From: Peribacillus kribbensis DSM 17871
Lineage (GTDB): Bacteria > Bacillota > Bacilli > Bacillales > DSM-1321
Direction: 5' to 3'
NCBI RefSeq assembly: GCF_000430765.1
Contig: NZ_AUMQ01000039.1
Location: forward strand, 1 to 54,339
DNA length: 54,339 bases
Shown: piece by piece, positions 3,862 through 33,162 of the stretch
How positions within the stretch are numbered: position 1 is the stretch's first letter
How the letters are laid out: every line of letters begins with the position of its first letter
The notes under the pieces: generated by a model
Database searches by the model: none
The model's input: the letters and a program-made list of their open reading frames with translations, nothing else
Told to the model about the DNA's origin: nothing
Translations under genes and position numbers: made by a program

Positions 3862-5082
3862 TTAATGAGATTTAATCAAACTTTCGACTTTTTTAAGGAT
3901 ATTCACTCCACTGTATTTGAGGGTAGAGCGATGTGCAAGGACGGCTGAGGCAAAGAGCAGGACAGCCGTCAGAAGAAACACGATTTGAATCGTAAAGATG
4001 CCCCCGACAAATCCTCCAAGGATAGGTCCGAGCATGCCTCCCAGCTGATTTGCCGTCTGGTTTAAACCAAAGGCCCGCCCTCTTGCATCCGGATCCGTCC
4101 ATTTTACAATCAAGCCATTCAATGCAGGGAACACAGCACAGAAAAAGAATCCGAATATAAACCGTGCAATGGAAAAGCCCCATACATCGTTAAAGAAAAT
4201 CTGGGCCAGGGAGCCGAGTCCGCCGCCTATCAACCCAATCAGGAGAATTGTTCCAAAGCCGATCTTATCCGAAAGCTTCCCCCAATACGGACCAATCAGA
4301 ATGCTGGAAATCCCGGGTATGGAAAAGATCAGTCCAGCCAAAAAGGATGTATTATGAGAAGTGCCATGCAAATTCATGATATGAAGAGGCAGCACCGGTT
4401 CCAGAATCATAATGGAGCAGGCGGCACCCATAGTCAGCATCAAAACCATCATGAGCGGTTTATTTCCAGCTGCCTCTTGTATGTTCTTTTTAACAGAGCC
4501 TCTCGTCTTGCTTGGTGTAAATTTTTCTTCCCTTACAAGGAACAGGACAAGCAGGGTGGAAATGAGCACCATGCAGCCTCCAGTGGCAAAAGATAAGCGG
4601 TTGCCAACCAATTCGGAGATTCCGCCTCCAAGCAGCGGACCAATGATTCCCCCGGAAGCGGTTCCTGTAGAAATCGCTGCTAACGCATATCCAACTTTCT
4701 TCTCCGGCGTATTCGTACCGATCAAGGCGACCGCCCCGGGAATAAAGCCGGTAAGCAGTCCCTGTGATATGCGAAGGATCAGCACTTCATAAGGATTAGT
4801 AACAAAAGACATCAGAGTATAGATGATAAAAAGAAAAAAGCCTGCTCTGACAATCATCGGTTTACGGCCATACTTATCCGCAATCGTTCCCCAAAAAGGT
4901 GCGGAAACAGCGCCAGCTAAAAACGCAGCACTAAAGGTTATGCCAGACCAGATTTCAGTGTGATGATGGACGCCGATCTGCAAAAGAAAAAGCGGCAAAA
5001 ACGGTATGACCATTGAAAAACTAGCAGACGTTATAAAAACACCTATCCAAAGAACCCATAAATTTCTCTTCCAAGTTTCCAT
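3862..5082 (-). CDS. MFS transporter, drug-efflux type (12 TM)
   Basis: Integral membrane proton-coupled exporter of the major facilitator superfamily. The 406-residue length and about twelve hydrophobic segments fit the 12-TM multidrug group resembling MdtG/TetA. The MFS signature is visible in the loop after TM2 as GTIADKYGRKP. A second copy of the loop motif (GPYWGKLSDKIGFG) begins the C-terminal half. The substrate cannot be read from sequence. It is transcribed divergently from trpB and is monocistronic. Confidence 0.85.
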   Translation of the reverse strand: METWKRNLWVLWIGVFITSASFSMVIPFLPLFLLQIGVHHHTEIWSGITFSAAFLAGAVSAPFWGTIADKYGRKPMIVRAGFFLFIIYTLMSFVTNPYEVLILRISQGLLTGFIPGAVALIGTNTPEKKVGYALAAISTGTASGGIIGPLLGGGISELVGNRLSFATGGCMVLISTLLVLFLVREEKFTPSKTRGSVKKNIQEAAGNKPLMMVLMLTMGAACSIMILEPVLPLHIMNLHGTSHNTSFLAGLIFSIPGISSILIGPYWGKLSDKIGFGTILLIGLIGGGLGSLAQIFFNDVWGFSIARFIFGFFFCAVFPALNGLIVKWTDPDARGRAFGLNQTANQLGGMLGPILGGFVGGIFTIQIVFLLTAVLLFASAVLAHRSTLKYSGVNILKKVESLIKSH

Positions 5083-7548: not shown

Positions 7549-8223
7549 TTATTGGAGTTCAAGGGAACTGCCTTCCTCATCTTGTTTTTTAAAGCCGGAT
7601 ATTTCATTGTAGAAAGCGGCCTGTGTTGTATTCATGTAAGGAATGAGCCAGAGCAGGCCGATAAAGAGGGTGAAAATGCTCAGAATCCCCCACCCGATAA
7701 AGCTGAGACAAAGAAGGAAGTACCGCCATTTTTGACCGTCCATCAACTTCCGGCTGAAAGTGATGGCCTGATTGGCGGAGTATTCAGGGTGGTCCTTCAG
7801 AATAAAACCGGTCTGTGAGTATGCTAGAGATTTAATGATTCCAGGTACGATAAGGAGCAGGGACCATAGAATGGTATAAAGCCCCATTAAAAAGCTGGCC
7901 AAAATTAATTTGCCTGATACCGCCGAGTTTGAAAAAGGCTTGCTGAATAAATCGGCAATCTCGGTATGTTCCCTCCGTACAATGTTTAAATACATCCAGC
8001 TCGCTCCAATTGTTATTGGAGTGAGAAGGAGGGACAGAAGCATTTGGGAAATCCCTTTGACAATATCTTTTGCATCGCCTTCAAAAAAGCTCGCTAATAT
8101 AGCCCCTGCCAAATTTGGAACCGCACTCCCTACAAGTCCTGAAAGCACAATGATTCCAATAGCAAGGCCCCAGCGTCCCCTTAAACCAAAGAGCGCTTCC
8201 TGCTTAAATTGTCTGATCTTCAT
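7549..8223 (-). CDS. DUF975 family membrane protein
   Basis: Integral membrane protein of 224 residues with about five or six hydrophobic segments. The N-terminal IRQFKQEALFGLRGRW patch and the central region with Y-x-x-L-N-I match the DUF975 family. Function is unknown for the family. The C-terminal tail (GFKKQDEEGSS) is polar and probably cytosolic. It is monocistronic. Confidence 0.75.
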   Translation of the reverse strand: MKIRQFKQEALFGLRGRWGLAIGIIVLSGLVGSAVPNLAGAILASFFEGDAKDIVKGISQMLLSLLLTPITIGASWMYLNIVRREHTEIADLFSKPFSNSAVSGKLILASFLMGLYTILWSLLLIVPGIIKSLAYSQTGFILKDHPEYSANQAITFSRKLMDGQKWRYFLLCLSFIGWGILSIFTLFIGLLWLIPYMNTTQAAFYNEISGFKKQDEEGSSLELQ

Positions 8224-26349: not shown

Positions 26350-27417
26350 ATGGAAACTACTTTTCCGATTTTTCAAGTGCTGGACGCGAACGGAAATCTT
26401 GCTGATGAAAGCTGCAGGGAATACGTGGACGAAACACTAGTTAAGGAGTTTTACTCTGGAATGGCCAGGATCCGCATTTTTGACCGGAAGGCGGTGAGCC
26501 TTCAGCGCCAGGGAAGGATTGGGACGTACGCTCCGTTTGAAGGCCAGGAGGCTTCCCAGGTGGGAAGCGCCAAGGCGTTAAATCCTGATGACTGGATGTT
26601 TCCCACTTATAGGGACCATGGGGCTGCCATGACGTTCGGACATTCCTTGCTGAATATCCTGCTTTTCTGGAATGGAAGGAATGAAGGCTGTGTACCGCCG
26701 GAGGGAAAAAGGATTTTTCCGCCTGCTGTTCCAATTGCCACGCAGCTGCCTCATGCTGCAGGTGCGGGGTTTGCCGAAAAGAAAAAAGGAACGGAGAATG
26801 CCGTCATATGTTATTTTGGCGATGGAGCAACCTCAGAGGGAGATTTCCATGAGGGCTTGAATTTTGCTTCTGTCTTTAAATCTCCGGTTGTCTATTTCTG
26901 CCAAAATAATCAGTATGCCATTTCTGTCCCGATTCATAGACAGATGAATTCAGCCACCATTGCCCAAAAGTCGATTGCTTATGGGATGGAAGGAAAACGG
27001 GTGGACGGCAACGATGTATTTGCGGTTTACATAGAAACAAAAAAAGCTCTAGAGCGTGCAAGAAAAGGAGAGGGACCTACGCTAATCGAGGCGGTGACAT
27101 GGAGATACGGTGCCCATACGACGGCGGATGATCCGTCTAAATACCGCGACCAGGAGGAAAGCACAATGAAAAGACGGGAAACAGATCCCATGCTCCGCCT
27201 TGAAAGGTGGCTGAAGAATGAAGGAATGTATGAGGAAGGCTGGGTCAGGGAAATCGAGGAAAAGGCCGCACAAGAGATAGATCGGGCCATCCTTGAAATG
27301 GAGGAATTTCCGGCCCCGGATCCCGCCGCGATCTTTGACTATGTGTTTGAAAGGCCGACATGGACCATTGAGAAGCAGAAGCAGGATTATTTTGAGCTGA
27401 TCAGAGGTGGGGAATGA
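26350..27417 (+). CDS. 2-oxoacid dehydrogenase E1 component, alpha subunit
   Basis: Thiamine-diphosphate E1 alpha subunit, 355 residues, of the pyruvate dehydrogenase type. The ThDP/magnesium motif GDGATSEGDFHEGLNFA is at about residue 157, with a phosphate-side loop RYGAHTTADDPSKYRD near 255. The latter is closer to PdhA than to branched-chain E1 alpha (which has TPHSSDDD). GGAGGAG precedes the ATG. Substrate is not settled: pyruvate, a branched-chain or an aromatic 2-oxoacid. First gene of a four-gene operon. Confidence 0.9.
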   Translation: METTFPIFQVLDANGNLADESCREYVDETLVKEFYSGMARIRIFDRKAVSLQRQGRIGTYAPFEGQEASQVGSAKALNPDDWMFPTYRDHGAAMTFGHSLLNILLFWNGRNEGCVPPEGKRIFPPAVPIATQLPHAAGAGFAEKKKGTENAVICYFGDGATSEGDFHEGLNFASVFKSPVVYFCQNNQYAISVPIHRQMNSATIAQKSIAYGMEGKRVDGNDVFAVYIETKKALERARKGEGPTLIEAVTWRYGAHTTADDPSKYRDQEESTMKRRETDPMLRLERWLKNEGMYEEGWVREIEEKAAQEIDRAILEMEEFPAPDPAAIFDYVFERPTWTIEKQKQDYFELIRGGE

Positions 27418-28412
27418 TGAAGACCGTACAAAAATCAAAAGTCTTGACCCTTGTCGCTGCCATAAATGATGCACTGGATATTATGCTTGAAGACGATTCA
27501 GGGGTCCTTCTGCTTGGCGAGGACATCGGTAAAAACGGCGGCGTATTCAGAGCAACAGACAGCCTTCTAGAAAAGTACGGCCAGGACAGGGTGATAGATA
27601 CTCCCTTGAGTGAAGCGGGATTTGTCGGAGCCGCGATCGGAATGGCGGTGAACGGCTTCCGCCCTGTCGTTGAGATTCAATTCTTAGGATTTATCTATCC
27701 GGCTTATGAACAAATCATGACCCATGCTTCAAGGCTCAGAATGAGAACAAGGGGGCATTTTACCGTCCCCATGGTGATCCGGGCCCCTTATGGAGCGGGC
27801 GTCCGGGCACCTGAAATCCATTGCGACAGTACGGAGTCACTTTTTACCCATATGCCGGGCATGAAGGTGGTCTGCCCTTCCAATCCGTATGACGCCAAAG
27901 GGCTGATGATAGCAGCCATCCAGGATCCCGATCCGGTTTTGTTCCTTGAACCGATGAGAAGCTACCGTTCACAAAGGGAAGAAGTTCCGGAAGGGAAGTA
28001 TGAGGTGGAGATCGGAAGGGGGAAAAAGCTGGCAGAAGGCAAGGATGTTACCCTTATCGGCTGGGGGGCCATGATTCCGATTGTGATGAAGGCTGCAGAG
28101 GAAATGAAGGAAAAAGGGATATCGTGCGAAGTCCTGGATTTAAGGACCCTGTATCCCCTTGATAAGGACCTTGTCATGGAATCCGTTCAAAAAACGGGCC
28201 GGACCGTCATAGTCCATGAAGCACATGCAACCGGGGGGACAGGGGCAGATTTGATCTCCCTGATCAATGACGAGGCATTCCTTTATCAGAAAGCGCCGGC
28301 TGAAAGGGTGACAGGCTTTGATGCACCCGTTCCCTTTTTCGGGCTCGAAGACCATTATCTGCCTTCAACGAAACGGGTAGCAGCGGCCATTGAAAAAGTG
28401 ATGAAGTTTTAG
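27414..28412 (+). CDS. 2-oxoacid dehydrogenase E1 component, beta subunit
   Basis: Beta subunit of the same E1, 332 residues, supplying the aminopyrimidine-binding glutamate region in LGEDIGKNGGVF and the PLSEAGFVG motif. RAPYGAGVRAPEIHCDS is the family middle motif. Its start overlaps the alpha-subunit stop (ATGA); a second ATG follows at once. Confidence 0.93.
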   Translation: MMKTVQKSKVLTLVAAINDALDIMLEDDSGVLLLGEDIGKNGGVFRATDSLLEKYGQDRVIDTPLSEAGFVGAAIGMAVNGFRPVVEIQFLGFIYPAYEQIMTHASRLRMRTRGHFTVPMVIRAPYGAGVRAPEIHCDSTESLFTHMPGMKVVCPSNPYDAKGLMIAAIQDPDPVLFLEPMRSYRSQREEVPEGKYEVEIGRGKKLAEGKDVTLIGWGAMIPIVMKAAEEMKEKGISCEVLDLRTLYPLDKDLVMESVQKTGRTVIVHEAHATGGTGADLISLINDEAFLYQKAPAERVTGFDAPVPFFGLEDHYLPSTKRVAAAIEKVMKF

Positions 28413-28422
28413 GAGGTGCAGC

Positions 28423-29616
28423 ATGTTTGAGGTAAAACTGAATGATATCGGGGAAGGGATGACAGAAGCCGGCATCAGCTGCCTGTTTGTCAAGGCCGGG
28501 GATGAAGTCAAGGCGGATGAGCCGTTAGTGGAGATACAGACCGATAAAATGACTGCAGAAATCCCGGCCCCAAGGCCGGGAATAATAAAAAGCATCCTGA
28601 TAAGCACAGGGGAGACCGTCAAAGTGGGCACCACCTTGTTCATCCTGGAGGAACAAATTCCATCGGAAAAGAGGGAGCCGCCTGAGAAAGGAGTCCCTTA
28701 TCATCCTAGAATACTGGCTTCTCCCTATACAAGAAAAATAGCAAGAGACCACTCGGTGAACATTGAAGAAATCAGGGGAACAGGGCCTTCCGGCCGCATC
28801 ACGGACGAGGATGTCCTGGCCTTTATTTCTTACAGTGATTCCGCAGACATTAAGTCCCTCTCAATAGGAACTATTCCGCAGGATACAGGCCAAAAACCTT
28901 TACCTGCAAGTGCTTTGCAGGAGTTGGGGCTGATTCCATTCCGCGGCCGCAGAAAACAGATTGCAAAGAATATGGTCCATTCTCTAACGGTCATTCCGCA
29001 TTGTACCCATTTTGAGGAAATCGATGTAAGCGGCCTGTCAGACTTCCGTAATGAACTGAAAGCATCCGGCCAGTCCATTTCTGCCGCTAGCTTTTTCGTC
29101 AAAGCACTCTCTGTATGCCTTAAGGAATATCCAGTCTTCAATGCAATGCTTGATGAGAAACAGGAGGAAATCCGGCTGCTGAAGGAGCATCACATTGGAA
29201 TCGCGGTGGATGCGCCGGAGGGCCTCATTGTGCCGGTTATCCGGAATGTGGAGCAGAAAAACATAAAAACCATACAAAAGGAAATGAAAAATCTCACAGA
29301 GCGTGCCCTATCTGAAAAATTGACCATAAAGGACATCTCAGGGGGTACCTTTACAGTAAGCAATGTAGGGCCGCTCGGCGGCAGTATCGGGGCGACACCG
29401 ATCATCCAGCATCCCCAGGCTTCGCTCGTTTCGTTCCATAAAACAAAGAAGAGGCCGGTTGTTACAGATAACGATGAAATTGTGATCCGCTCTATTATGA
29501 ATATGTCGATGTCCTTCGACCACAGGGTGGCAGACGGTGCAGCTGCCGTCCGCTTCACAAACCGATTTGCCGAGCTGATTGAAAATCCTAAAATGCTTCT
29601 CCTGGAGTTGATGTAA
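28423..29616 (+). CDS. 2-oxoacid dehydrogenase E2 (dihydrolipoyl acyltransferase)
   Basis: Core acyltransferase, 397 residues. Lipoyl domain residues 1-77 with the lipoylated lysine in TDKMTAE, peripheral subunit-binding domain about 92-130 (SPYTRKIARDHSVN, GTGPSGRITDEDV), then the catalytic domain with active-site SFDHRVADGA near the C-terminus. One lipoyl domain only. AGGAGGTG is the ribosome site. Overlaps the E3 start by one base. Confidence 0.94.
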   Translation: MFEVKLNDIGEGMTEAGISCLFVKAGDEVKADEPLVEIQTDKMTAEIPAPRPGIIKSILISTGETVKVGTTLFILEEQIPSEKREPPEKGVPYHPRILASPYTRKIARDHSVNIEEIRGTGPSGRITDEDVLAFISYSDSADIKSLSIGTIPQDTGQKPLPASALQELGLIPFRGRRKQIAKNMVHSLTVIPHCTHFEEIDVSGLSDFRNELKASGQSISAASFFVKALSVCLKEYPVFNAMLDEKQEEIRLLKEHHIGIAVDAPEGLIVPVIRNVEQKNIKTIQKEMKNLTERALSEKLTIKDISGGTFTVSNVGPLGGSIGATPIIQHPQASLVSFHKTKKRPVVTDNDEIVIRSIMNMSMSFDHRVADGAAAVRFTNRFAELIENPKMLLLELM

Positions 29617-31046
29617 TGGTAGTCGGAGAGATTGCTCACGAAAAGGAGCTTGTTATCATTGGCGGCGGCCCCGGCGGCTATCATGCTGCCATCAGGGCTT
29701 CCCAGCTGGGCATAAGGGCTGTGCTGATTGAAAAAAAGGAGCTTGGCGGGATCTGCCTGAATAAAGGCTGCATCCCCTCCAAGGTATTCTCCCATACAGG
29801 GGAACTCCTTACCTCCATAAAGACGAAAGAACAGTTTGGTATTAAAGCCGAAAAAATTGAATTTGATTTCCATAGTCTGATCCATTACAAGCAGGAAGCG
29901 GTCCAAAGGCTCCGAAGCGGAGTGGATGCCCTGTGCAGGGAAAATAAAGTAGAAATCATCAAAGGAAAGGGGTATTTCTTATCGGAGGACAGGATTGGCG
30001 TTGAACAAAAGGATTCTTATGAAGTCTTCCGTTTTAAGTCTGCCGTCATCGCCTCCGGCGGTGTCCCTGTTGAACCATCAGGCTGCCCTATCAATGATTC
30101 CCGAGTCCTGAGCCCCTGGACCATCACTAATTTGAAGACAGTGCCTGGACATCTCATAATTTTGGGCGGTGATTATATTGCCCTTGAAATGGCCATGGCC
30201 TATAAGGCGTTCGGTTCCAAAGTCAGCATGGTTTTACCTGAAGGGAAGAGGGATTTTTCCTTCGATCCAGCCATCAACCGGGAATTGACCCGTGTCTTCA
30301 AGAAAACCGGCATTTCCATTCTGAAAGGATACTCCATGCTGGGGATGGATGCAGGAAGTGAAACGATAACCATCCAGCTTAAGGGAGAAAATGAGAGCAA
30401 AAACGCAGAAGGAACTCACTTGTTTTATTCCCTTGGAACTAGGCCGAATGTAAAGAATCTGGGTTTGGAGCGCCTGGGCCTTGCATTGACGGAGGAAGGA
30501 TGTATCCAGACAGATCCGGCTGGAAGGACCTCTATCCGGAATATTTATGCGGTGGGGGATGCCGTTTCGGGCCCTTCGCTGGCTGTAAAAGCCATGAAAC
30601 AGGGAAAGATTGCAGCCGAAACGATTGCCGGCTTAAAGAGTGAAACTGATTTAAGGTTTATGCCTCGAATCGCCCGCACATACCCGCCGATCGCCTGTGC
30701 TGGCCTGACAGAGCCGGAAGCAATAGCGGAAGGCTACGACGCCGCAGCCGGCGAGTTTTCCCTCGCTGGAAACGGGTATGCAGAAATTCTTGGGTCAAAA
30801 GAAGGACTGGCCAAGCTAGTCTTTGACAAGAAAACAGATGTGCTTCTTGGCGTTCATCTCATCGGCCGCGGAGCCGCTGAATTGCTCTCCGGGGGCATCC
30901 AGGCACTTGAAATGGCCGCGCGCTTTGAGGATCTCCGATTCCCTCTGTATCCTCATCCCTCCCTTAATGAGGCAGTAATGGAGGCGGCTGAAGCTTTCAA
31001 GGGAGAAAGCATCCACAGCAGGCCAAAAAAATTAAAGCGTCTGTAA
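29616..31046 (+). CDS. lpdA: dihydrolipoamide dehydrogenase (E3)
   Basis: FAD flavoprotein that reoxidises the lipoyl group. FAD motif GGGPGGYHAAIRA begins at about residue 16, redox cysteines are C47 and C52 in GGICLNKGCIPSK, and the C-terminal HPSLNEAV holds the catalytic histidine, here preceded by YP rather than HA. Length 476 is normal. TAATG coupling with E2 shows one operon and a dedicated E3. Confidence 0.93.
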   Translation: MVVGEIAHEKELVIIGGGPGGYHAAIRASQLGIRAVLIEKKELGGICLNKGCIPSKVFSHTGELLTSIKTKEQFGIKAEKIEFDFHSLIHYKQEAVQRLRSGVDALCRENKVEIIKGKGYFLSEDRIGVEQKDSYEVFRFKSAVIASGGVPVEPSGCPINDSRVLSPWTITNLKTVPGHLIILGGDYIALEMAMAYKAFGSKVSMVLPEGKRDFSFDPAINRELTRVFKKTGISILKGYSMLGMDAGSETITIQLKGENESKNAEGTHLFYSLGTRPNVKNLGLERLGLALTEEGCIQTDPAGRTSIRNIYAVGDAVSGPSLAVKAMKQGKIAAETIAGLKSETDLRFMPRIARTYPPIACAGLTEPEAIAEGYDAAAGEFSLAGNGYAEILGSKEGLAKLVFDKKTDVLLGVHLIGRGAAELLSGGIQALEMAARFEDLRFPLYPHPSLNEAVMEAAEAFKGESIHSRPKKLKRL

Positions 31047-31117
31047 AAGAGGGCTCTTAGAGAGAAGAGGGAAAAATTAAATTCTTGCCATGATTAGACT
31101 GAATTGTATTGATACTT

Positions 31118-31148
31118 AGCTCTCATGAAGTTTTTGAGAGCTTTTTTA
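31118..31148 (+). terminator. terminator of the dehydrogenase operon
   Basis: AGCTCTCA pairs perfectly with TGAGAGCT, followed by six T. Confidence 0.88.
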
Positions 31149-31174
31149 ATGTTCTTTAATGGAAATTTTTAAAG

Positions 31175-31204
31175 GCATAAAACCCCTGCATCTGAAGCAC
31201 AATA
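31175..31204 (+). promoter_or_regulatory. SigG-like forespore promoter
   Basis: GCATA (31175-31179) and CACAATA (31198-31204) have an 18-base spacer. They fit the published SigG pattern (gnATr and CAnnnTA) at all defined positions. It lies 37 bases before the DUF1657 start. No SigA match as good is visible. Forespore expression is inferred. Confidence 0.6.
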
Positions 31205-31240
31205 ACTTTGTTCCACATTTCAATACAGGGGTGATTTTTA

Positions 31241-31447
31241 ATGACCGTTATCCAAAACGTAAAAACAACAGTCGCTGGTTTAAAAAGTGCTCAGGCAAGT
31301 TTTGAAACTTTTGCGCTTTCCACTGACAATCAAGAGGCGAAAAAATTATATGAGGATGCAGCCCAGCAGACTCAGTCCATAATTGAAACAATCTCAAGCC
31401 GTGTAGAAGCAATCGAGCAGGAAGAGCCGCAATACACACAAGGGTAA
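31241..31447 (+). CDS. DUF1657 protein, first copy
   Basis: Helical 68-residue cytosolic protein of the DUF1657 family (VKTTVAGLKSAQASFETFAL). DUF1657 proteins occur in spore operons with SpoVA and YetF-type proteins. AGGGGTG is the ribosome site. About 45% like the next gene and also like the tail of the third gene, so the operon holds three copies of one domain. Confidence 0.85.
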   Translation: MTVIQNVKTTVAGLKSAQASFETFALSTDNQEAKKLYEDAAQQTQSIIETISSRVEAIEQEEPQYTQG

Positions 31448-31454
31448 ATCAAAA

Positions 31455-31479
31455 GGAGGCTGGCATCAAGCCAGCCTCT
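31455..31479 (+). repeat. perfect hairpin between DUF1657 genes
   Basis: GAGGCTGGC and GCCAGCCTC pair fully around ATCAA, plus one wobble. No T-run follows. It may act as an RNA stabiliser or partial terminator. Confidence 0.7.
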
Positions 31480-31507
31480 CCATAAGGTAAAGAAGGAAGA
31501 TGAAATT

Positions 31508-31714
31508 ATGACGGTGGCATCTAATGTAAAACAGACACTGGCATCCCTAAAAGGAATTGAAGCCCAGCTTTCAGCCTTTGCGTTAAACTCAAAAGATTCA
31601 GAGGCCCAGCAGGTCTTTCATGAAGCCATGATCGAAATGGCGGAAATCAAGAATGAAATCCAAATGAGGGTATACGAAATTCAGCGGGAAGAAGAACAAT
31701 ATCAGTCATCATAA
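31508..31714 (+). CDS. DUF1657 protein, second copy
   Basis: Helical 68-residue protein, same family (VKQTLASLKGIEAQLSAFAL). Acidic C-terminus QREEEQYQSS. Ribosome site is AGAAGGAAG. The next gene starts 13 bases after its stop, so all three are one transcript. Confidence 0.85.
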   Translation: MTVASNVKQTLASLKGIEAQLSAFALNSKDSEAQQVFHEAMIEMAEIKNEIQMRVYEIQREEEQYQSS

Positions 31715-31727
31715 ATGAGGTGAGGAT

Positions 31728-32585
31728 TTGACGGTTTGGGATATCGCTCTTCGATCCGTAATATTCTTAATTGTCTTGTTTGCGGCAGCAAAATTATTAG
31801 GGAAAAAGCATATATCGCAATTATCCTTTTTCGAATATGTATCTGGGATTGTGCTTGGGGATATTGCTGGGGAAGTGATCCTGGGCGAAGATCAGTATAT
31901 CATGCATGGAATCGTCGGCATTTTCATCTTTACTGCAGTTACATACCTTGCAGACTTCCTTTCCTTGAAGAGCCGAAGATTTAGGGAAATCATCGAAGGC
32001 AAATGCACCGTTTTTATAGAAAATGGAAAAATTTTAGAAGATCATTTAAAAAAAGAAAGATATTCCGTAGAAGACCTTGCCGCCCTGCTGCGTGAAAAGG
32101 ATGTGTTCAATATCGCCGATGTTGAATTTGCCGTATTGGAGCCGAAGGGTAAATTAAGCGTTCTCCTTAAAAAAGAAAAACAGCCGCTTACTCCTAAGGA
32201 CCTCAAGATTAAGACACCCAATGAGAAAGAACCCCAGGCGGTCATCATGGACGGGCAGGTCATTTATGAGGCACTCGGCAAAACAGGGAAAACGCTTGAA
32301 TGGGTAAATAAAGAATTATCCAAACAAGGGGTGTCCCTCAACAATGTCTTTTATGCCCAGATCGACAGCTATGGAGAGATGACCATCGATCTTTATAATG
32401 ATAAAACGAAAACATCCTCTCCAAATGCGAGACCCCTTCTCCTGGCAGAAATTAAAAAAACCCAGGCGGATCTGGAATCATTCTCCTTGCAGACTTCTAA
32501 TAAAGCAGCAAAGAATATGTATGCTAAAAATGCGGAAAAAATGACTTCCATCCAAAAAAGACTGGAGCCCTTCCTGAAAGGATAG
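31728..32585 (+). CDS. 2Duf protein: DUF421 membrane domain plus DUF1657 tail
   Basis: Membrane protein of 285 residues. About residues 5-75 form three membrane segments, then a DUF421 cytosolic domain with VFIENGKIL and AVIMDGQVIYEAL. The last 60 residues (KKTQADLESFSLQTSNKAAKN) form a DUF1657 domain. Proteins of this plan (2Duf) in the mobile spoVA2mob operon raise wet-heat resistance of spores and sit in the inner membrane; that is knowledge from other Bacillus. Here no spoVA gene is present. TTG start with GAGGTGAGGA upstream. Confidence 0.88.
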   Translation: MTVWDIALRSVIFLIVLFAAAKLLGKKHISQLSFFEYVSGIVLGDIAGEVILGEDQYIMHGIVGIFIFTAVTYLADFLSLKSRRFREIIEGKCTVFIENGKILEDHLKKERYSVEDLAALLREKDVFNIADVEFAVLEPKGKLSVLLKKEKQPLTPKDLKIKTPNEKEPQAVIMDGQVIYEALGKTGKTLEWVNKELSKQGVSLNNVFYAQIDSYGEMTIDLYNDKTKTSSPNARPLLLAEIKKTQADLESFSLQTSNKAAKNMYAKNAEKMTSIQKRLEPFLKG

Positions 32586-32625
32586 TGCGGGTTGAAAATA
32601 GGGAAGCAGCGCTTAAGGCTGCCCC

Positions 32626-33162
32626 TTATTTTATTTTCCGGCTCCGGAGCACGGTAATGAAGCCATCCAGGATTTCATGACTGACTGTAAATCCTTTCCG
32701 CTGATAAAATTCCAATGCGTTCGTGTTTCCATTGGAAACGAAGATGAAGTAATCTTCTGCTTCTTTGAAGGTCTGCAGCCATGTCATGGACAGATCAAAG
32801 AGCTTTGAACCGACTCCATACTTTCTATATCCTTCCTTAATATAGAACTGAGATAAGCAGCCGACCTGTTCCATTTTCACTGATGAGAGATCAAAAAAAG
32901 CAGCAAAATCATTGGAATAGGTTTCCTTTGGTGAAATATTGGAGTAGACATATCCGACAGGCTGATCACGGTCCTTTACTAAAACGATGTAATTATGAGA
33001 GGCAGAATCAATGGATGGAAGCATTCTTGTTTCAAAGTTCATGCTGTCAAACAGTTCGGGTCTTATCGCAGCCACAGATTTTTGAAAAGCCATAAGCTCA
33101 TTGCACAGCTCCCTGCATGCTTCAGCTCTTTCGGCTGGTATAACCTCATATGTAAGGTTCAT
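32626..33162 (-). CDS. GNAT family N-acetyltransferase
   Basis: Acetyl-CoA-dependent N-acetyltransferase, 178 residues. The acetyl-CoA pyrophosphate loop appears as FYIKEGYRKYGVGSKLF. The C-terminal ALEFYQRKGF motif is the usual strand-helix end of the fold. The acceptor substrate is unknown. Converges on the 2Duf gene, 40 bases apart, with a GC-rich imperfect hairpin (about 32601-32625) between. Confidence 0.85.
   Translation of the reverse strand: MNLTYEVIPAERAEACRELCNELMAFQKSVAAIRPELFDSMNFETRMLPSIDSASHNYIVLVKDRDQPVGYVYSNISPKETYSNDFAAFFDLSSVKMEQVGCLSQFYIKEGYRKYGVGSKLFDLSMTWLQTFKEAEDYFIFVSNGNTNALEFYQRKGFTVSHEILDGFITVLRSRKIK

What the first reader, a model, noticed from the sequence alone, without database searches (positions are those of the whole stretch)
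31175..32585. SigG-like promoter and three-copy DUF1657 operon ending in a 2Duf protein, with no SpoVA genes
The operon has DUF1657, DUF1657, and a DUF421 membrane protein with a DUF1657 tail. 2Duf proteins from the spoVA2mob operon raise spore wet-heat resistance (known). Here the trio stands alone, with a GCATA-18-CACAATA promoter fitting SigG. It suggests a chromosomal, SpoVA-independent heat-resistance or inner-membrane module in which the small DUF1657 proteins bind the tail of 2Duf.
Basis: partly seen in the sequence, partly recalled or inferred. Interest (0 to 1): 0.8.

Follow-up and report, generated by a model that had tools for sequence, protein, structure and literature searches.

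The report
SpoVA-free 2Duf spore membrane operon
This is a small sporulation gene cluster that keeps the gene linked to extreme spore heat resistance but lacks the usual neighbouring channel genes, so it could show whether that gene works without them.

Summary
At 31241-32585 lie two 68-aa DUF1657 genes and a 2Duf gene (YetF_N + DUF421 + DUF1657 tail), flanked by terminator-like hairpins, with a SigG-like promoter at 31175-31204. They hold the only DUF1657 hits in the 5.05 Mb genome. Its single spoVA operon (yhcN-spoVAC-spoVAD-spoVAEb) is on another contig. Relatives show a definite variant rather than a stray remnant. The DUF1657-DUF1657-2Duf trio stands without spoVA in 29 of 80 titled loci. 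Trio 2Dufs plus two from the window's genus form one clade (100/99 in a bootstrapped tree of 66 rows). The SigG-like promoter is conserved. The three DUF1657 copies are old, separate positional lineages, not recent duplicates. DUF1657 tracks sporulation: 179 of 182 positive genomes of the class have Spo0A. Yu et al. [quoted passage not shown] these loci are exceptions. Most likely it is a forespore-expressed inner-membrane resistance module. Heat resistance, tail binding and functional independence from SpoVA are untested.

The parts
31118..31147 (+). terminator-like hairpin with T run, after the upstream gene
   Evidence: fold of 31108-31150: -11.5 kcal/mol, z -2.9, followed by UUUUUU; not flagged by the scan
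31175..31204 (+). SigG-like promoter GCATA-18-CACAATA
   Evidence: 24 of 33 trio upstream regions score >=11 of 12 against 6.7% of shuffles
31227..31234 (+). likely ribosome-binding site AGGGGTGA
   Evidence: sequence
31241..31447 (+). DUF1657a, first-slot small protein, 68 aa, predicted two-helix hairpin
   Evidence: Pfam PF07870 1.2e-20; AlphaFold2 mean pLDDT 92.6; a-lineage
31455..31479 (+). conserved intercistronic stem-loop (GGAGGCTGGC-ATCAA-GCCAGCCTCT)
   Evidence: gap MFE -20.2 kcal/mol, 0 of 500 shuffles as low; covariance-model hit E 0.00096, but the window is one of the 48 rows of that model; changes on both sides at 7 of 10 pairs
31508..31714 (+). DUF1657b, second-slot small protein, 68 aa
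   Evidence: Pfam PF07870 2.8e-18; b-lineage
31728..32585 (+). 2Duf: YetF_N transmembrane region + DUF421 + DUF1657 tail, 285 aa, TTG start
   Evidence: Pfam; AlphaFold2 mean pLDDT 79.6; PDB relative YetF 3c6f, 7.4e-29
32436..32570 (+). DUF1657 tail domain inside 2Duf
   Evidence: predicted helices 234-255 and 259-283
32595..32632 (+). terminator-like hairpin after 2Duf
   Evidence: fold -16.8 kcal/mol, z -2.8; scan hit 32606-32622, where shuffles give 2.0 such sites per region

Best explanation
The trio is a self-contained sporulation operon. Shown by sequence: three intact genes between terminator-like hairpins, a conserved SigG-like promoter, a conserved stem-loop after gene 1, and a spoVA-free 2Duf clade. 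Inferred: it is transcribed in the forespore by SigG; 2Duf goes to the spore inner membrane, where like YetF and the spoVA2mob 2Duf it makes the membrane more rigid and raises resistance to wet heat and to chemicals that must cross it; the small DUF1657 helical hairpins are accessory partners. The clade most likely arose when the yhcN-spoVAC-D-Eb block between DUF1657a and DUF1657b was lost once from a spoVA2-type operon. The stem-loop probably separates expression of DUF1657a from DUF1657b-2Duf, by leaky termination or by protecting an mRNA 3' end. The core is 2Duf: in the sequences seen, spoVA, DUF1657a or DUF1657b can each be missing while 2Duf stays (the searches looked for 2Duf or DUF1657, so loci that lost 2Duf were not sought).
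For: Domains. Only DUF1657 hits in the genome. Trio in 29 of 80 titled loci; no SpoVA- or YhcN-type ORF anywhere in the 5.2-14.9 kb held for any of the 33 trio loci. Clade of 33 trio rows, SH-aLRT 99; with G001/G002 35 rows, 99; without the tail, 24 of 66 rows, 100/99. Promoter at 17/18 spacing in 24 of 33 trio loci, 0-2 at each of five other spacings. Stem-loop. DUF1657 and Spo0A: 179 of 182 against 325 of 398, Fisher 7e-18. dN far below dS in 8 close pairs for a, b and 2Duf, apart from one 2Duf dS that could not be computed. Small DUF1657 proteins were found in B. subtilis A163 spores (PMC8005191, passages). YetF and YdfS loss lowers spore heat resistance (PMC10126465 and PMC12548441, abstract and passages). 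Loss of the 2Duf orthologue in spoVA2mob severely diminished heat resistance (reported in PMC5376575, passage; the original paper was not held).
Against: No expression, localisation or phenotype data were found for this operon or any spoVA-free 2Duf. The window's -10 departs from the recalled consensus at one base, and SigF and SigG sites resemble each other (recalled). 2Duf itself was not detected in A163 spores. In that proteome DUF1657b had 27 peptides and DUF1657a 17 (slots inferred from identifier order), which does not support an excess of DUF1657a. The window's stem-loop lacks the T run seen in many relatives. The model misses the stem-loop in 7 of 29 titled trio loci and in all 3 further trio loci searched, L049, L050 and L053.
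Confidence: 0.68

Rival explanations
1. Split operon: 2Duf and the DUF1657 proteins still work on SpoVA, with YhcN-SpoVAC-D-Eb from the unlinked operon, so loss of linkage is not functional independence.
For: The genome has exactly one spoVAC-D-Eb set, on C27, after a yhcN-like gene. G003 and G008 of the same family have Y-C-D-E-DUF1657b-2Duf together. 2Duf is usually spoVA-linked in the loci seen and in PMC10126465 (section 15).
Against: The spoVA-free arrangement is kept across a whole clade. Some genomes hold both a trio and a full operon: Bacillus sp. V3B (L095, L138) and 522_BSPC (L089, L128).
Confidence: 0.35
2. Decaying remnant of a spoVA2-type operon after internal deletion.
For: Loss does occur: G093 keeps only the 3' end of DUF1657a before an intact DUF1657b-2Duf; G001 and G002 keep only DUF1657b-2Duf.
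Against: Three intact frames, dN far below dS in related trios, a conserved promoter, and one spoVA-free clade spread over Neobacillus, Cytobacillus, Mesobacillus and others.
Confidence: 0.08
3. A vegetative or general membrane-stress operon, not a spore one.
For: DUF421 proteins occur in non-spore-formers: the E. coli and L. lactis controls ring.
Against: DUF1657 rings in none of 14 control genomes (B. subtilis, a spore-former, is among them) and follows Spo0A; SigG-like promoter; no sigma-70-type site between 31030 and the first gene in the scan.
Confidence: 0.07
4. The stem-loop is an ordinary intrinsic terminator, so DUF1657a is a separate monocistronic gene and the downstream genes have their own promoter.
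For: In many spoVA-linked loci it has an A tract and a T tract, as terminators do. A weak sigma-70-like site (9 of 12) lies inside gene 1 at 31302-31330, though 3 sites were found where shuffles give 3.3.
Against: The window copy is followed by CCATAAGG, no T run; only 60 nt separate genes 1 and 2; no second SigG-like match in the operon.
Confidence: 0.25

Closest known systems
spoVA2mob operon (Tn1546) of B. subtilis, B. amyloliquefaciens, B. licheniformis and its chromosomal counterpart in B. cereus
   Same: Same slots: SigG-like promoter, DUF1657a, DUF1657b, 2Duf (PMC5133452 passage; PMC10126465)
   Different: yhcN, spoVAC, spoVAD and spoVAEb are absent from the operon; its 2Duf belongs to a separate clade from the spoVA-linked 2Dufs sampled; no transposon was looked for
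spoVA2 locus of Clostridium sporogenes PA 3679
   Same: DUF1657 protein plus DUF421/DUF1657 membrane protein (PMC5376575 passage)
   Different: There they accompany spoVAC, spoVAD and spoVAEb, with one small DUF1657 gene
YetF/YdfS family of B. subtilis spore inner-membrane proteins
   Same: DUF421 family; 3c6f YetF is the only solved relative found by sequence; SigF/SigG expression reported
   Different: No DUF1657 tail; [quoted passage not shown] subtilis

Membership tests
2Duf proteins | YetF_N/DUF421 followed by a C-terminal DUF1657 domain, about 285-290 aa | tested here: met
2Duf proteins | raises spore wet-heat resistance | not testable with these tools
   needs mutants
spoVA2mob / spoVA2-type operon | spoVAC, spoVAD and spoVAEb in the operon | tested here: not met
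spoVA2mob / spoVA2-type operon | DUF1657 first, DUF1657 just before 2Duf | tested here: met
   each copy falls in the lineage of its slot
spoVA2mob / spoVA2-type operon | SigG promoter before the first DUF1657 gene | tested here: met
   by motif only; the -10 differs from the strict recalled consensus at one base
spoVA2mob / spoVA2-type operon | carried by a Tn1546-like transposon | not tested
   no transposase search was made
SigG regulon | sigG-dependent forespore transcription | not testable with these tools
   motif evidence only

The most novel reading that the evidence does not exclude
The DUF1657/2Duf proteins form a spore-membrane machine of their own, to which the SpoVA channel is optional cargo: three non-interchangeable DUF1657 helical hairpins (two free, one on 2Duf) assemble a core-side scaffold on the 2Duf tetramer that stiffens the inner membrane, and a conserved stem-loop after the first gene sets the ratio of free DUF1657a to 2Duf.
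Probability: 0.2. Interest if true: 0.78.

Novelty: new variant of a known kind. Interest (0 to 1): 0.58.

Why it matters
Whether 2Duf needs SpoVA, YhcN and the small DUF1657 proteins is open; Yu et al. [quoted passage not shown] A clade with 2Duf and DUF1657 but no linked spoVA, and sister species with DUF1657b-2Duf only, are natural tests of which parts matter. The conserved stem-loop is an element to test in all such operons; a search for spoVA2mob with 'terminator' found 0 papers in the held library, which lacks most subscription journals. Spore heat resistance matters for food spoilage and sterilisation.

Tried and rejected
Rfam on 30900-32800: four matches, all far below their gathering scores. 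Foldseek of DUF1657a: no match at E <= 0.001; the best are ferritin-like EncB hairpins (E 0.16), and the consensus of the alignment has no His, so a ferritin reading was rejected. Sequence search of DUF1657a against the PDB: nothing below 0.34. NCBIfam: no family for the three proteins. Phage records: no match to DUF1657a. Plasmids: 16 of 230 matching records cover at least 80% of 2Duf, under 60% identity; their gene order was not examined. Synteny: 13 trio loci, among them Neobacillus, share a downstream neighbour family. The window's four upstream neighbours and its first downstream neighbour have no relative among the trio flanks. Its second downstream gene, a permease, groups with permeases at varying places near 7 other trios, and its third with 2 other flank genes. 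One fixed locus was therefore rejected. RNAalifold on unguided MAFFT alignments of the gap failed for the trios (0.0) and gave five pairs for the spoVA set, -1.4. Recent triplication of DUF1657 was rejected. The trio as strictly one clade became trio plus G001/G002 when these were added.

Limits: the 80 titled loci are the best of 367 and are ranked by likeness to the window's 2Duf, so 29 of 80 is not a frequency. Rows dropped: five duplicates (L048, L055, L058, L061, L064) before the trees and the promoter and stem-loop counts; 34 locus prefixes thinned. Stem-loop alignment A4 was chosen with a motif that favours pairing at the core, so one search is biased upward there. Only passages were seen of most papers; PMC11841064 and PMC13068155, which name DUF1657, were seen in the listing only.

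Full report
What is there. The window holds DUF1657a (31241-31447), DUF1657b (31508-31714) and 2Duf (31728-32585) in tight order on the + strand. Pfam confirms all domains over the curated cut-offs. A terminator-like hairpin (31118-31147) precedes the unit and another follows it (32595-32632). Upstream is a pyridine-nucleotide-disulphide oxidoreductase gene (a lipoamide dehydrogenase by appearance), downstream a GNAT gene on the other strand.

Genome context. All three DUF1657 hits in the 5.05 Mb genome are in this operon. There is one SpoVAC, one SpoVAEb and one SpoVAD, together on contig C27 after a YhcN-like gene. So the seven parts of a spoVA2mob operon are present, at two places; other YhcN-like genes of the genome were not counted. 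Other DUF421 genes are present: 11 hits in all, seven in frames of 221 aa or more including 2Duf.

Relatives. A search of species genomes with an alignment of 14 2Dufs returned 80 loci with record titles, the best of 367. Of these 80, 29 are DUF1657-DUF1657-2Duf without spoVA. Over all 100 loci examined, five of them duplicates, the arrangements were: 39 full DUF1657-YhcN-C-D-Eb-DUF1657-2Duf, 33 trios, 11 with C and D, 5 with D only, 3 DUF1657-2Duf, 5 2Duf alone or at an edge, 4 others. No trio locus has a SpoVA- or YhcN-type ORF in the DNA held, 5.2-14.9 kb. Trio species include Neobacillus, Cytobacillus and Mesobacillus. Some arrangements with fewer spoVA genes may reflect missed ORFs, since each rests on my own profiles. 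In the five genomes with a trio for which SpoVAD was counted, the copies were G000 1, G088 1, G095 1, G045 2, G050 3.

Ancestry. In a tree of 96 2Dufs the 33 trio rows, window included, are one side of one branch, SH-aLRT 99. With 15 more rows the clade gains G001 and G002, the two other held species of the window's genus, giving 35 rows at 99. Without the DUF1657 tail, 66 rows, the clade has 24 rows at 100/99. With the deep spoVA-linked and duo rows outside it, the spoVA block was probably lost in this line; the root is by midpoint only. G001 and G002 have just one small DUF1657 before 2Duf, of type b (scores 71 and 68 against 29 and 15 for a). G093, which falls among spoVA-linked rows, has DUF1657b-2Duf with only the 3' end of a DUF1657a gene before it, a separate loss. 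Three other loci, L051, L052 and L054, keep type a and 2Duf without b.

Three slots. First, second and tail DUF1657 form three groups in a tree of 273 domains: 87, 87 and 96 rows, each one side of a branch, local support 85, 98 and 99 (few columns, many unresolved forks). DUF1657a is the most conserved: 72% mean identity between trio and spoVA operons, against 49% for b and 53% for the tail. Fold: DUF1657a is a two-helix hairpin, mean pLDDT 92.6. 2Duf has three long helices in the transmembrane region, strands and helices of the DUF421 part, and a tail hairpin, mean pLDDT 79.6. No complex was modelled.

Promoter. Within 130 nt before DUF1657a, 24 of 33 trio loci reach 11 or 12 of 12 positions of the recalled SigG consensus; shuffles reach that in 6.7%. 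By spacing: 19 loci at 17 nt, 5 at 18, and 0-2 at each of 14, 15, 16, 19 and 20. In 29 of 33 the best site starts 64-78 nt before the start codon. In the 57 other loci 29 reach 11, shuffles 6.0%. Prior work gives a predicted SigG promoter for spoVA2mob and the B. cereus operon.

Stem-loop. Between genes 1 and 2 the window has a 10-pair stem, -20.2 kcal/mol, 0 of 500 shuffles as low. Many relatives have GGTTGG..CCAACC at the same place: 22 of 33 trio and 36 of 54 spoVA-linked loci match the motif, against 0.2% and 0.1% of shuffles. On 48 rows, 7 of 10 pairs show changes on both sides, 39 cells against 11.5 in shuffles (rows chosen by motif, so biased). A covariance model run over 73 sources, 1.06 Mb, gave 56 plus-strand hits at E <= 0.01 besides the window's own. 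Of these, 53 lie within 150 nt after a small DUF1657 gene; the other three are one at a contig edge, before YhcN, and two elsewhere. Two minus-strand hits at E <= 0.01 (L101 1819, L115 853) are also elsewhere; the remaining minus-strand hits mirror plus-strand ones. Eleven of the 53 loci were not in the model. In L136, where the gene order is permuted, the hit still follows a DUF1657 gene. Of 72 loci checked, 19 have no hit after a DUF1657 gene at that threshold, including 7 of 29 trios. In 24 further loci none of the hits follows a small DUF1657 gene: these include loci without DUF1657a, as expected, but also three trios (L049, L050, L053) and the three type-a duos, against expectation. Many spoVA-linked copies look like intrinsic terminators with A and T tracts; the window copy has no T run. 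I read it as a device that separates the output of gene 1 from the rest; this is inference. Peptide counts in A163 spores, 27 for DUF1657b and 17 for DUF1657a (slots inferred from identifier order), give it no support.

Sporulation link. In 398 genomes of the class, 182 have DUF1657 and 325 have Spo0A. Reading the two lists together by eye, 179 of the 182 have Spo0A (exceptions G054, G178, G310); Fisher p 7e-18. Relatedness is not corrected for.

Function. Knowledge of the families: YetF and YdfS loss lowers B. subtilis spore resistance (abstract and passages of PMC10126465 and PMC12548441), and loss of the spoVA2mob 2Duf orthologue severely lowers heat resistance (as cited in PMC5376575). The operon is therefore most likely a forespore-made inner-membrane resistance module. 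That it acts without SpoVA is possible but not shown.

Known or new. The protein family, the promoter type and the DUF1657-2Duf pairing are known. A stable spoVA-free clade, the three-slot ancestry and the stem-loop were not seen in the listings and passages returned. DUF1657 is named in 6 held papers. Yu et al. 2023 state the opposite for linkage. Their supplementary tables could not be read here.

Noticed in passing
L177 (G093) 4824-4919: 3' end of a DUF1657a reading frame stands before an intact DUF1657b-2Duf pair: a loss caught half-way.
   Followed up: partly
L136 7001-9967 (Litchfieldia salsa): Permuted order 2Duf-DUF1657-SpoVAC-SpoVAD-DUF1657; the stem-loop still follows a DUF1657 gene (8190-8219).
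   Followed up: partly
L171, L172 (G003, G008, same family as the window): YhcN-SpoVAC-D-Eb followed directly by a very divergent DUF1657b and 2Duf, with no DUF1657a.
   Followed up: partly
L098, L154; plasmid CP079755.1: 2Duf-like sequence in records titled Pseudomonas, Sphingomonas and Klebsiella; perhaps mislabelled or mixed assemblies.
   Followed up: no
L105 7920-8603, L119 8029-8709, L161 2977-3660: A DUF421 gene of about 227 aa, without room for the tail, lies next to the 2Duf operon in several species.
   Followed up: no
window 26350-31046: By appearance a four-gene 2-oxo acid dehydrogenase operon (E1 alpha, E1 beta, E2, lipoamide dehydrogenase) directly upstream of the trio; only the last gene was run against Pfam.
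   Followed up: no
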